From assembly GCA_963971535.1 (NCBI GenBank), contig OZ020601.1:17920767-17984766 (forward strand): DNA of 64,000 bases. The letters are read 5' to 3'. A model generated the notes under the pieces. The model searched no databases. It worked only from the letters and a program-made list of their open reading frames with translations, and was not told the origin of the DNA. The DNA comes from Notolepis coatsorum (lineage: Eukaryota > Chordata > Actinopteri > Aulopiformes > Paralepididae). Positions 22,901 to 28,900 of the stretch are shown one piece after another. The position numbers were made by a program, and so were the translations under genes. Every line of letters begins with the position of its first letter. Position 1 is the stretch's first letter.

Positions 22901-25900
22901 GCAGGAGCAGGTGGGAGGGGACATGCATGCAGGAGCAGGTGGGAGGGGACATGCATGCAGGAGCAGGTGGGAGGGGACATGCATGCAGGAGCAGGTGGGA
23001 GGGGACATGCATGCAGGAGCAGGTGGGAGGGGACATGCATGCAGGAGCAGGTGGGAGGGGACATGCATGCAGGAGCAGGTGGGAGGGGACATGCATGCAG
23101 GAGCAGGTGGGAGGGGACATGCATGCAGGAGCAGGTGGGAGGGGACATGCATGCAGGAGCAACGGAATTACAGGTCAAGAGGAGACACACGCTATTCTTC
23201 AGTGTACAGTGCCAGTATAGAACTAGTACAGTACCAGTATAGTACCAGTATAGAACTAGTATAGTACCAGTACAGTACCAGTATAGAACTAGTAGAGTAC
23301 CAGTATAGAACTAGTACAGTACCAGTATAGTACCAGTACAGTACCAGTAGAGTACCAGTAGAGTACCAGTATAGAACTAGTACAGTACCAGTATAGAACC
23401 AGTATAGTATGAGTACAGGACCAGTATAGTACCAGTATAGTACCAGTATAGGACCAGTACAGTACCAGTATAGTACCAGTACAGTACCAGTATAGTACCA
23501 GTACAGTACCAGTACAGTACCAGTATAGTACCAGTACAGTACCAGTACAGTACCAGTATAGAACCAGTACAGTACCAGTACAGTACCAGTATAGTACCAG
23601 TACAGGACCAGTATAGGACCAGTATAGGACCAGTACAGGACCAGTACAGTACCAGTACAGTACCAGTACAGTACCAGTACAGGACCAGTACAGTACCAGT
23701 ACAGGACCAGTATAGAACCCTGGAACTGAGGAACCATCAAGTACGTTTTGAGATTTCTTGGACAGCCCATGTATTTGCAAATCACTTGGAGTGTGATGGA
23801 TTGGATGGACTGCATTTATAGTGTTTTTATCCAAAGCGCCTTGCAACTTAGCAAGTGTTTTCTGTGGGAGAAGTCCTTGGGGATTGCCATCCTACAGACA
23901 TCCGCGGAATTAAATAATTATAATTATAATAAATACGACAATATTTGTATCATTAACAATCACGTTTTACATATATAGTCATGACGCAACAAACCATGTC
24001 AGAAAATAAATAAATTAGGGCTGGGACTTCATTTCGATTAATTAACTACAGAAAATTACGCATTTTATCGCACGTCATGGCACTTTGCTCTCGTCTGTCG
24101 GCTCCGGGCTGCGTTTTTGCCAATCAACCAATACATTGCTGGACAGCCGTGCAGACGAGCATAATTTGACAAGCCGTGCAGACGAGTGACCACATCCGGT
24201 TGTGAACCGTCCTGAACGCCTGAATGCCTTCTACAACAGAACTGCGTTTCCGCGTCTCTGATTGGCCAGGTCATTTCTGGTCATGTGACATGTACGCCCA
24301 ATCGTGGCAATAGATGGATATAGCAAGATAGCATAAGGATATATAGTATAACTGTATATTGTATAGTATAGTATTGTATAGTAGTGTATATAAGATCCAG
24401 TGCCTCATCTGTAGCTTAACACTGTATTGCACTATCGCAGGACCTTAGCATGTCTTTTTTTTTTTTTAAACTTCATTTTTTTAGCGTTAATCGTTTTTTT
24501 TTTTGGTCAAGCATGACCGACAGAAACAGGTTGAATAGGATGTAGAGTAGGGGAAGACACTCTGAGAAAATACGGCGAGTCCGGGAGTCGAACTCGTGTA
24601 CCCCAGATCCGTGACGAGCACGGTTGTCCCCGACGCCGAAATGGCGCCGAGATACGCGGTGAGCTACGGGAGCTCGCCCCTTAGCATGTCTTTTACCATG
24701 CATTTTAAACTTTATGTACATTATACCTGTTATGTCTTATTACTTGTATTATTGCACAATCGCTGCGGGCATGACCACCCGCATTTCACTGTATGCCCTG
24801 TATGCCGTGACAAATAAAACTCTTGACTTGACTTGTGATTTATTTTCTTAGAGCTATATATTCTTTGGTTCATTCCAGACAGGCAGTCAGGCACAACTGT
24901 CTGATACTCATTATTTTGAATAAAAACATTAATGGTCTACTATAAGGAAAATACAAGGATTATAAAGATAACATACGCCGCTTTCACCGTTGGTTCCAAT
25001 TAAACAATTTAGAACTGGACCTACATAAGATGGCTGTCATATGGTCCCATTCCAGAATGTAAATTGATTTTGACACATCGCATCTACTGTTTTTTTTTTT
25101 TTTTTTTTTTATCTATGGATATACCAGTATTATTACTTATGTTGATCTTAGAATTACCTTTGTTGATCTTGGTATTATTACCTTTGTTGATATTGGTATT
25201 ATTACCTTTGTTGATCTTGGTATTGTTACCTTTGTTGATCTTGGTATTATTACCTTTGTTGATCTTGGTATAGTTACCTTTGTTGATCTTGGTATTGTTA
25301 CCTTTGTTGATCTTGGTATTATTATTACCTTTGTTGATCTTGGTATAGTTACCTTTGTTTATCTTGGTATAGTTACCTTTGTTGATCTTGGTATTGTTAC
25401 CTTTGTTGATCTTGGTATTATTATTACCTTTGTTGATCTTGGTATAGTTACCTTTGTTGATCTTGGTATTGTTACCTTTGTTGATCTTGGTATTATTATT
25501 ACCTTTGTTGATCTTGGTATTGTTACCTTTGTTGATCTTGGTATTGTTACCTTTGTTGATCTTGGTATTCTTACCTTTGTTGATCTTGGTATTGTTACCT
25601 TTGTTGATCTTGGTATTATTATTACCTTTGTTGATCTTGGTATAGTTACCTTTGTTGATCTTGGTATTGTTACCTTTGTTGATCTTGGTATTATTATTAC
25701 CTTTGTTGATCTTGGTATTGTTACCTTTGTTGATCTTGGTATTGTTACCTTTGTTGATCTTGGTATTCTTACCTTTGCTGATCTTGGTATTGTTACCTTT
25801 GTTGATCTTGGTATTATTATTACCTTTGTTGATCTTGGTATAGTTACCTTTGTTGATCTTGGTATTGTTACCTTTGTTGATCTTGGTATTATTATTACCT

Positions 25901-28900
25901 TTGTTGATCTTGGTATTGTTACCTTTGTTGATCTTGGTATTGTTACCTTTGTTGATCTTGGTATTATTATTACCTTTGTTGATCTTGGTATAGTTACCTT
26001 TGTTGATCTTGGTATTGTTACCTTTGTTGATCTTGGTATTATTATTACCTTTGTTGATCTTGGTATTGTTACCTTTGTTGATCTTGGTATTCTTACCTTT
26101 GTTGATCTTGCCCATGATGGCCAGCTCCAGGTACTTCTTGTTGTCTTGCTTGCTGTAGAGACCCAACAGGACTCCGCCCAGCTTAGAGGGCAGACGGAAG
26201 GTGGACACCACATAGATGTCACTGAGTGTGCCCATGGCCCCTGCAATCTCCTCCACGGCCACCACGCTCTGCTTGGCATCCTGCAGGGTGAGCATGTCAA
26301 TCACTGGGGAGGGAGGAGAGGAGGGAAGGAGAGGTGTGTGTGGAGGGCGGGCAGAACGACAGATTCGATTGTCAGGGAGGAGGGTGAAAACTGTTAAATG
26401 ATAATTCCTTTCTGTGATATGTTGCCTGATGTCAAACCAATACATTCCACTTTCAGCTGGTTATTCATAACATAATGGATCATGAATTACAGGCTAACAC
26501 CCAGTGTTGGGGAGGAGTTAACTACATGCAGCTCAATTACTAGTTTAACTACAATTTGCAGTAGTTGGGTGGTAGTTTAAGGTTCTACCACCACGTCACC
26601 AATAAAAACAATGTTGATTTATTTTGCACATAATCTCACACACCAAAAACATCTACAGTTTTGCACAGCACAAGAGGAGGCAGAGACAGTCAAACGACCA
26701 GAGTCTGAAGGTCACTGATACACAGAGCTAAGAGGAACCAGTCTGAAGGTCACTGATACACAGAGCTAAGAGGAACCAGTCTGAAGGTCACTGATACACA
26801 GAGCTAAGAGGAACCAGTCTGATGACCAGTCTGAAGGTCATGTCCACGCTTGCCTAAAGGTCACACCTTATTCAACACAAGGGGGGAAAAAAGAACAAAA
26901 AAAAAGAACGCAAAAAAATTAACGAACTAAAACGAAAACGCAAAAAAAGAACGCAAAACAATTTACGAACTAAAACAAAAACGCAAAAAAACGAACGAAA
27001 AAAAAGAATGCAAAAAAAGAACACAAAAAAATTTACGAACTAAAACAAAAATGCAAAAATGAACGAAAAAAAACGAACGCAAAAAAATGTACGAACTAAA
27101 ACAAAAACGCAAAAAAACGAACAAAAAAAATAATGCAAAAAAAGAACAAAAAAAAAGAATGCAAAACAATTTACGAACTAAAACAAAAACGCAAAAAAAA
27201 CGAACGCAAAAAATTTTACGAACTAAAACAAAAACGCAAAAAAACTAAGAGGAACCAGTCTGAAGGTCACTGACACACAGAGCTAAGAGGAACCAGTCTG
27301 AAGGTCACTGACACACAGAGCTAAGAGGAACCAGTCTGAAGGTCACTGATACACAGAGCTAAGAGGAACCAGTCTGAAGGTCACTGATACACAGAGCTAA
27401 GAGGAACCAGTCTGAAGGTCACTGATACACAGAGCTAAGAGGAACCAGTCAGATGACCAGTCTGAAGGTCATGTCCACGCTTGCCTAAAGGTCACACCTT
27501 ATTCGATTGTCCAACACCCTGCTAACAGCTCGTCTCTCTAGTGAGTGATTTTAGTTAGTTAAAAAATTTACGAACTAAAACTAAAACGAACAAAAATAAG
27601 AACACAAAAAAAGAACGCAAAAAAATGGAAAAAAAAAGAACGCAAAAAAACGAACGAACTAAAACGAAAATGCACAAAAAGACGCAAAAAAAAGAACGAA
27701 CGAAAACGCAAAAAAACGAAGGAAAAAAAACAAACGCAAAAAAATTTACGATCTAAAACGAAAAAAAAACGCTAAAAAACGAACAACCACTAAAACGAAA
27801 ACGAACAAAAAAATAACGCACAAAAACTAACGCAAAAAAACGAACGAACTAAAACAAAAACGCAAAAAAACTAAAGAACTAAAACGAAAATGCAAAAAAA
27901 AAAACGCAAAAAAAAGAACGAACTAAAACGAAAACGCAAAAAAACGAACAAACTAAAACGAACAAAAAAATAACGCAAAAAAAAGAACACAAAAACACCC
28001 TCTCCTCCTCTGACCCTCTGACTGTATTATCTGAACGAACTAAAATGAAAAAGCAAAAAAAAGCAAAAAAAAATTCGAACTAAAACTAAAACGAAAAAAA
28101 AAATAACGCAAAAAAATGGAAAAAAAAGAACGCAAAAAAACGAACGAAACTAAAACAAAAACGCAAAAAAACTAACGAACTAAAACGAAAACGCTAAAAA
28201 ACGAAGAAGAAAAAAACGAACGCAAAAAAATGTACGAACTAAAACGAAAAAAAACCCTAAAAAACGAACAAACTAAAACTAAAACGAACAAAAAATCACT
28301 GTAAGAGGAACCAGTCTGAAGGTCACTGATACACAGAGCTAAGAGGAACCAGACTGAAGGTCACTGATACACAGAGCTAAGAGGAACCAGTCTGAAGGTC
28401 ACTGATACACAGAGCTAAGAGGAACCATCACTGAAGAAGGACATTGTCCGAAACATATCTGCTTTTTATTCAGGCTGCCATTAAAAAACATTGAACCTGT
28501 GAGTGCTGGTCCGGCTACCCTGCTTTTTGATATACTGAACTTTATGGGATTACAGCACCCAGTGTGAGAACTTGTGAGCGCGGTCTAACTTGACTATATG
28601 TGTATATTGGTAATTGGTCTGGGTATGAAAAAGCATATAGGCTAAACGTGTGATATGATATGATATATCAATGCATCCGACTTTTTCAGTCCCGATACCT
28701 GGCTTTGGGTATCGGCCGATACCGAGTACCGATCCGATACCCAAACCATTATCTGATTTTTTTTTTTTTTTTTTTATCTGACCCTAACTAACCTTACTGT
28801 CATGCACTTGTCCTAATATACTAACCTACACTGTAGCACTCAACACTTTGATGAACATTGTTACTCAGCTGATAGAGTTGTGCCCTTCCTGATGACTTGT

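What the first reader, a model, noticed from the sequence alone, without database searches (positions are those of the whole stretch)
25128..26097. About 39 in-frame copies of the thbs3 exon 2 donor: an expandable coding cassette
Seen: each unit repeats the exon end and donor (ATCAACAAAG|GTAA). Unit lengths are 24, 27 or 30, all multiples of three, and the exon 2 frame stays open through the whole array. Using the nth donor would insert n blocks of about eight residues (GNNTKINK type) between the two halves of the N-terminal domain with no frameshift. Two distal copies (boundaries 25773 and 25575; inserts of 324 and 522 nt, 108 and 174 codons) keep the exact GTAAGA of the real donor. Inference: repeat-length variation could become protein-length variation, or the copies could act as a sink for U1 snRNP.
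Basis: partly seen in the sequence, partly recalled or inferred. Interest (0 to 1): 0.88.

Follow-up and report, generated by a model that had tools for sequence, protein, structure and literature searches.

The report
Repeated splice-donor minisatellite in thbs3
A short stretch of DNA across the end of a thrombospondin-3 exon is repeated head to tail about 39 times, each copy carrying a splice-donor-like signal; it is one of several repeat arrays sitting at exon edges in this region, a known but rarely described kind of repeat that could lengthen the protein but has not been shown to.

Summary
A 24/27-nt minisatellite (25128-26110, minus strand) starts inside thbs3 exon 2 and repeats its end plus donor: 39 GGTAA sites counting the real one; all 39 would splice in frame and stop-free into exon 3. 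Corrections: no 30-nt units; 36 of 39 donors lack the +5 G; the two distal GTAAGA copies share one slot of a 198-nt higher-order unit. The open frame is weak evidence for coding: the opposite strand is open too, and copies at three other junctions are nearly all out of frame or stopped (0/19, 1/4, 0/26). The wider result: minisatellites cluster at splice junctions in both genes of the window, 11 array ends within 30 nt of an intron end against 1.65 expected, maximum 7 in 20,000 randomisations (robust). The kind is known: amphioxus 'mirages', human IFI6. Best reading: a boundary-spanning minisatellite, spliced mainly from the authentic donor, with possible minor in-frame isoforms. Coding cassette and U1 sink remain unproven; no RNA, population or whole-genome data could be reached.

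The parts
26097..26303 (-). thbs3 exon 2 (part of the N-terminal domain), 207 nt; acceptor ccccag|TGATTG, authentic donor ACAAAG|GTAAGA
   Evidence: 56.5% identical over 69 aa to recalled human THBS3; splice sites read
25128..26110 (-). Donor-spanning minisatellite, 24/27-nt units (13 exon-end nt + 11 or 14 intron nt), 39 GGTAA sites counting the real donor
25773..25773 (-). Array copy with a nine-base donor identical to the real one; would insert 324 nt (108 codons)
25575..25575 (-). Array copy with a nine-base donor identical to the real one; would insert 522 nt (174 codons); same higher-order slot as 25773
22542..22795 (-). thbs3 exon 3
   Evidence: 54% identical to recalled human THBS3; boundaries corrected by hand
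22793..23161 (-). 28-nt array at the exon 3 acceptor; 12 upstream copies read CACCTG where the real acceptor reads CACCAG
18470..18645 (-). 31-nt array starting at the thbs3 exon 4 donor
3309..4166 (-). 43-nt array copying the thbs3 exon 12 acceptor and first exon bases; 20 CAG|GACAACTG sites counting the real one at 3334; 0 of 19 upstream copies in frame and open
1923..3060 (-). 34-nt array ending 19 nt before the thbs3 exon 13 acceptor; 33 upstream copies matched, 8 with CAG, 25 with CGG or TGG
1688..1757 (-). thbs3 exon 13 donor and one further copy (1 mismatch in 22) about 56 nt downstream
41006..41187 (-). 41-nt array copying the mtx1 exon 7 acceptor and 11 exon bases; 5 CAG|GCCTTCC sites counting the real one at 41016
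47494..48235 (-). Irregular array of about 19-nt units after the mtx1 exon 5 donor; 27 further GGT[AG] sites, 26 of them tested for frame, none in frame and open
55621..56170 (-). 66-nt array ending 16 nt before the mtx1 exon 3 acceptor (intronic only)

Best explanation
It is a boundary-spanning minisatellite of the 'mirage' type. A 24-nt tandem duplication took in 13 nt of the end of thbs3 exon 2 and 11 nt of intron 2 including the donor. It then grew by unequal exchange or slippage to 39 units: block duplication made an 8-unit (198-nt) higher-order repeat and AAT slippage the 27-nt units. Shown: the anatomy, donor sequences, reading frame, and the clustering of arrays at splice junctions in both genes of the window. 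Inferred: the growth route; that splicing mostly uses the authentic donor at 26097, the outer copy, which keeps the +5 G; that most copies are weak donors; that the two identical copies may give rare isoforms with 108 or 174 extra codons in a loop of the N-terminal domain. On this reading the array is a by-product of repeat turnover at an exon edge, tolerated because selection preserves the working outer copy.
For: Unit anatomy and donor table. Predicted U1 pairing is -9.5 kcal/mol for the real donor and its two identical copies, -6.5 to -7.0 for the other 36. Arrays copying the thbs3 exon 12 acceptor (43 nt), mtx1 exon 7 acceptor (41 nt) and mtx1 exon 5 donor (about 19 nt) are nearly all out of frame or stopped (0 of 19, 1 of 4, 0 of 26 tested), so arrays of intact-looking splice sites persist here without coding use. 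Minisatellite ends within 30 nt of intron ends: 11 observed, 1.65 expected, maximum 7 of 20,000; thbs3 alone 6 against 1.15, mtx1 alone 5 against 0.48. Amphioxus mirages have the same anatomy, and RT-PCR there suggests that regular splicing is not disturbed (passage).
Against: Two array copies have a nine-base donor identical to the real one; when two strong donors compete the intron-proximal one can win (recalled), so dominance of 26097 is not certain. In IFI6 downstream copies are used (passage). All 39 donors are in frame and open, as coding use would need. A direct count of copied junction words showed no excess: 4 of 38 junctions against 483 of 2000 random non-exon positions, though that control is unmatched because random positions often lie inside arrays.
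Confidence: 0.68

Rival explanations
1. IFI6-like alternative donors: several array copies are regularly used, giving a ladder of in-frame thbs3 isoforms, without a selected function.
For: Human IFI6 uses two downstream minisatellite units as donors, giving three mRNA species (passage). Here 39 of 39 donors are in frame and two copies are identical to the real donor over nine bases.
Against: 36 of 39 donors lack the +5 G and have weaker predicted U1 pairing; use of the two identical copies would need exons of 531 or 729 nt.
Confidence: 0.2
2. A selected expandable coding cassette: array length tunes thbs3 by adding GNNTKINK blocks, most with an N-glycosylation sequon, in the N-terminal domain.
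For: Open frame throughout; 37 N-X-S/T sequons in the 341-codon frame; the exon joint aligns to a GKAGT stretch of the thrombospondin-1 N-domain, probably a turn (inferred).
Against: One frame of the opposite strand is open as well. A unit length is a multiple of three by chance one time in three. Other junction-copying arrays in the window are nearly all not in frame and open. No conservation, RNA or protein evidence.
Confidence: 0.05
3. A sink or decoy for U1 snRNP that modulates splicing of exon 2.
For: 39 donor-like sites within about 1 kb.
Against: 36 of 39 have weaker predicted U1 pairing than the real donor; arrays at acceptors in the same window could not act this way.
Confidence: 0.04
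4. An assembly error: the array is expanded or misplaced by the assembler.
For: Long arrays are often misassembled (general knowledge); the window has one gap of 200 N at 40536-40735.
Against: The array is continuous with exon 2, carries ordered unit variants and a degenerate far end; similar arrays sit at other junctions.
Confidence: 0.03

Closest known systems
'Mirages': minisatellite-like tandem duplications of exon-intron boundaries in amphioxus (Adh3, globins BflGb6 and BflGb9; PMC3087553, passages seen)
   Same: Tandem units spanning an exon-intron boundary, at donors and at acceptors; many units keep AG/GT signals; cluster edges differ from the homogenised interior.
   Different: Here the genes are vertebrate thbs3 and mtx1; one array has 39 donor-type sites, all in frame; several junctions of two neighbouring genes are affected. 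Length instability and normal splicing were not testable.
Human IFI6 (6-16) minisatellite giving multiple splice donors (Turri et al. 1995; not held; seen only as described and cited in PMC4526556, and cited in PMC2572611)
   Same: A minisatellite at an exon's donor whose units supply further donors, so that transcripts can differ by whole repeats.
   Different: In IFI6 two downstream units are used; use is unknown here. Here most copies have weaker donors. The 12-nt unit of IFI6 is recalled, from no call.
[quoted passage not shown] passage in PMC8622921)
   Same: Junction-straddling sequence of a fish gene amplified in tandem.
   Different: There the repeat became coding sequence of a selected protein; here coding use is not shown.
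Tandem-repeat-rich Atlantic cod genome (PMC5241972, passages seen)
   Same: High density of tandem repeats in and near genes; here 58 merged arrays cover 16,437 of 64,000 bases.
   Different: In that paper's main text 'splice' had no occurrence and 'intron' one, in a reference title. The species of this window is unknown.

Membership tests
Mirage (exon-intron-boundary minisatellite) | Tandem units contain both exon and adjoining intron sequence | tested here: met
   24-nt unit AAGATCAACAAAG + GTAAxxATACC
Mirage (exon-intron-boundary minisatellite) | Many but not all units keep splice signals | tested here: met
   +5 G in 3 of 39 donors, GT in all 39 (the search string required GT; TRF's 38.8 copies and regular spacing leave no room for missed units). 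Acceptor arrays: exon 12 19 of 19 upstream copies with CAG (required by the pattern, spacing uniform), exon 3 0 of 12, exon 13 8 of 33
Mirage (exon-intron-boundary minisatellite) | Both 5' and 3' exon boundaries can be affected | tested here: met
   Donor arrays at thbs3 exon 2 and mtx1 exon 5; acceptor arrays at thbs3 exon 12 and mtx1 exon 7
Mirage (exon-intron-boundary minisatellite) | Length instability between haplotypes | not testable with these tools
   One sequence only; the genome search did not complete
Mirage (exon-intron-boundary minisatellite) | Regular splicing not disturbed | not testable with these tools
   No RNA data
IFI6-type multiple-donor minisatellite | Repeat units supply donor-like sites next to the authentic donor | tested here: met
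   39 GGTAA sites
IFI6-type multiple-donor minisatellite | Downstream donors would yield in-frame products | tested here: met
   39 of 39 open through exon 3
IFI6-type multiple-donor minisatellite | Downstream donors are used in mRNA | not testable with these tools
   No RNA data

The most novel reading that the evidence does not exclude
In this vertebrate lineage splice junctions are preferred birth or survival sites of minisatellites. Selection protects one working copy of each junction, which acts as an undying seed from which arrays regrow; arrays that happen to be in frame, like that of thbs3 exon 2, are then ready-made sources of new repetitive, glycosylatable protein segments.
Probability: 0.22. 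Interest if true: 0.75.

Novelty: new member of a known kind. Interest (0 to 1): 0.48.

Why it matters
The boundary-spanning minisatellites I found in print are in amphioxus and in single human genes. A vertebrate locus where they recur at many junctions of two genes gives material to ask why repeats start at exon edges, how the spliceosome picks the right copy out of dozens, and whether such arrays feed intron gain or new repetitive protein segments. The thbs3 array is a clean case because every donor copy is in frame.

Tried and rejected
Selection for an open frame: rejected as evidence, because one frame of the opposite strand is also open and other junction-copying arrays are nearly all not in frame and open.

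Independent preservation of GTAAGA at 25773 and 25575: unlikely, same slot of a higher-order unit (order read by eye).

Counting 22-nt junction words on the intron side (10 exon + 12 intron bases, up to 4 mismatches, within 1500 nt): 4 of 38 junctions had copies (thbs3 exon 2 donor 37, exon 12 acceptor 19, exon 13 donor 1, mtx1 exon 7 acceptor 3), against 483 of 2000 random non-exon positions. Not an enrichment; the control is unmatched, since random positions often lie inside arrays. It did not pick up the arrays at the mtx1 exon 5 donor and the thbs3 exon 3 acceptor.

Pfam gave no family for the joined N-terminal exons at E 0.001. In the PDB the two best rows for that query were designed 'Tet4 Variant' chains (2.1e-05, 2.6e-05) with no stretch passing on its own; thrombospondin-1 followed at 0.0015.

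No title or abstract start in the listings reported mirages gene-wide in a vertebrate. Listed papers that might bear on this were not opened, among them PMC3045353 (sea bream myostatin-2, minisatellite) and PMC12783039 (earthworm metallothionein). Most subscription papers are not held.

Rows left out: mtx1 exon 1 was not found, so its donor is not among the 38 junctions; arrays more than 60% covered by a period of 6 or less were removed from the minisatellite set; a last degenerate copy near 25128-25145 is not among the 39 sites; one of 27 further mtx1 exon 5 donor-like sites was skipped because it overlaps another.
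Full report
The gene. On the minus strand the window holds thbs3 (13 exons found, numbered as found, 32540 to 1744; the 3' part lies outside) and, upstream of it, mtx1 (exons 2-8 found, 61046 to 38380). Exons 11-13 match COMP and thrombospondin-2 in the PDB (5.1e-73 and 2.8e-52); exons 7-13 give Pfam TSP_3 and EGF_CA. The joined N-terminal exons give no Pfam family and match the thrombospondin-1 N-domain only weakly (E 0.0015, behind two designed proteins with no passing stretch). 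The mtx1 exons give GST_C_6 and Tom37. Calling the gene thbs3 rests on the recalled human sequence (82-92% identical in exons 11-13) and on its neighbour mtx1, adjacent to THBS3 in mammals (recalled). The species is unknown; a ray-finned fish is an inference.

The array. Exon 2 ends AAGATCAACAAAG|GTAAGAATACC. From there 39 GGTAA sites follow, the real donor counted; spacings are 24 nt (29) and 27 nt (9), none 30. The +5 position is G in 3, C in 23, T in 13 (summed from the nine-base table). Predicted pairing with the 5' end of U1 (recalled sequence) is -9.5 kcal/mol for the three with G and -6.5 to -7.0 for the other 36. Read by eye, units 6-13 and 14-21 are the same series of eight (198 nt), and units 22-29 differ from it only in the last. 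The two distal GTAAGA copies are the last units of the first two blocks; they differ by one base in the exon-like half. They are most likely one lineage, not two independent survivals. The far end of the array is degenerate.

Reading frame. All 39 donors give a stop-free frame through exons 1, 2 (plus insert) and 3. The insert reads mostly [16 protein letters not shown] or GNNNTKINK, with 37 N-X-S/T sequons in the 341-codon frame. The exon 2-exon 3 joint (KINK|ALVRYV) aligns with KAGT|-LDLSL of the thrombospondin-1 N-domain, probably a turn between strands (inferred). But an open frame is cheap here: one frame of the opposite strand has no stops either (a 444-codon plus-strand ORF spans the array), and a unit length is a multiple of three by chance one time in three.

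Natural controls in the same window. The exon 12 acceptor and the first bases of its exon are repeated in 43-nt units: 20 CAG|GACAACTG sites counting the real one, uniformly spaced; 0 of 19 upstream copies are in frame and open. The mtx1 exon 7 acceptor is repeated in 41-nt units: 1 of 4 upstream copies is in frame and open. The mtx1 exon 5 donor is followed by 27 further GGT[AG] sites in an irregular array of about 19-nt units; 26 were tested and none is in frame and open. The exon 3 acceptor has 12 upstream copies, all with TG in place of AG. In the array before the exon 13 acceptor 33 upstream copies matched the pattern, 8 with CAG and 25 with CGG or TGG. So arrays of intact-looking splice sites persist without coding compatibility, and the in-frame state of the exon 2 array needs no special cause.

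Clustering at junctions. Of 38 junctions, 11 have a minisatellite (period 10 or more) within 30 nt on the intron side or overlapping the exon, against 1.86 expected for random junctions; for arrays touching or overlapping the exon edge it is 5 against 0.98 (P 0.004). With microsatellites included, 18 of 38 lie within 30 nt against 2.79 (the two 30-nt tests have P at the floor of 2000 trials). Shuffling arrays within their own introns gives 1.65 expected array ends within 30 nt of an intron end against 11 observed, maximum 7 in 20,000 trials; a rerun with 10,000 trials gave 1.66, maximum 8. The result holds with a Tandem Repeats Finder score of 150 or more (8 against 1.39), three or more copies (10 against 1.35), thbs3 alone (6 against 1.15, P 0.0004), mtx1 alone (5 against 0.48), without the array of the finding (10 against 1.56), and without the five arrays that overlap or abut an exon (6 against 1.25, P 0.0004). 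I had noticed the pattern by eye before testing, but the tests use every junction found. A simpler count of copied junction words showed no excess over random positions (4 of 38 against 483 of 2000); that control is unmatched and is reported as it stands. Two adjacent genes in one window do not make a genome-wide rule.

What is known. Tandem repeats spanning exon-intron boundaries are called 'mirages' in amphioxus; donors and acceptors are affected, many units keep AG/GT, haplotypes differ in copy number, and RT-PCR suggests that regular splicing goes on (PMC3087553, abstract and other passages). Human IFI6 has two downstream repeat units used as donors, giving three mRNA species, with the minisatellite paper of 1995 cited for it (PMC4526556, passages; the original was not held). 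In human segmental duplications variable repeats at exon-intron boundaries have been linked to new introns (PMC2812944, passages). Notothenioid antifreeze glycoprotein grew from a 9-nt element straddling an intron-exon junction (PMC8622921, passage). Atlantic cod has unusually many tandem repeats (PMC5241972, passages). So the kind is known; my searches listed no vertebrate case with dozens of in-frame donor copies or a gene-wide pattern (listings only, apart from the papers named).

Verdict. Observation confirmed with corrections. The coding cassette is possible but unproven and not favoured; the U1 sink is unlikely. Most probable is a mirage-type minisatellite spliced mainly from the authentic donor, one of several at splice junctions in this window. 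The junction clustering is the more interesting lead and can be tested genome-wide.

Noticed in passing
5437-6342 and 9011-9060: The same 16-nt minisatellite unit lies near both ends of thbs3 intron 10, split by a 2.6-kb element with inverted-repeat ends (6363-6484 and 8880-8968), as if a DNA transposon had landed in the array.
   Followed up: partly
19201-21426: Open 741-codon reverse transcriptase ORF (Pfam RVT_1, E 2.4e-34) in thbs3 intron 3, a LINE-like element on the gene's strand.
   Followed up: partly
18755-18855, 15973-16096, 12049-12365, 11699-11894, 11436-11502, 5114-5267: Microsatellites also lie at splice sites: (CT)n or (TTC)n before the acceptors of thbs3 exons 4, 8 and 9; (GT)n and (CA)n after the donors of exons 5 and 8; a trinucleotide run after the exon 11 donor.
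   Followed up: partly
44607-46196: Longest minisatellite array of the window: 29-nt unit, 54 copies, in mtx1 intron 5, not at a junction.
   Followed up: no
1-64000: 58 merged tandem arrays cover 16,437 of 64,000 bases, about 26%; a cod paper gives 0.5-3% as typical of eukaryotic genomes (passage).
   Followed up: no
40536-40735: A run of 200 N, an assembly gap, in mtx1 intron 7.
   Followed up: no
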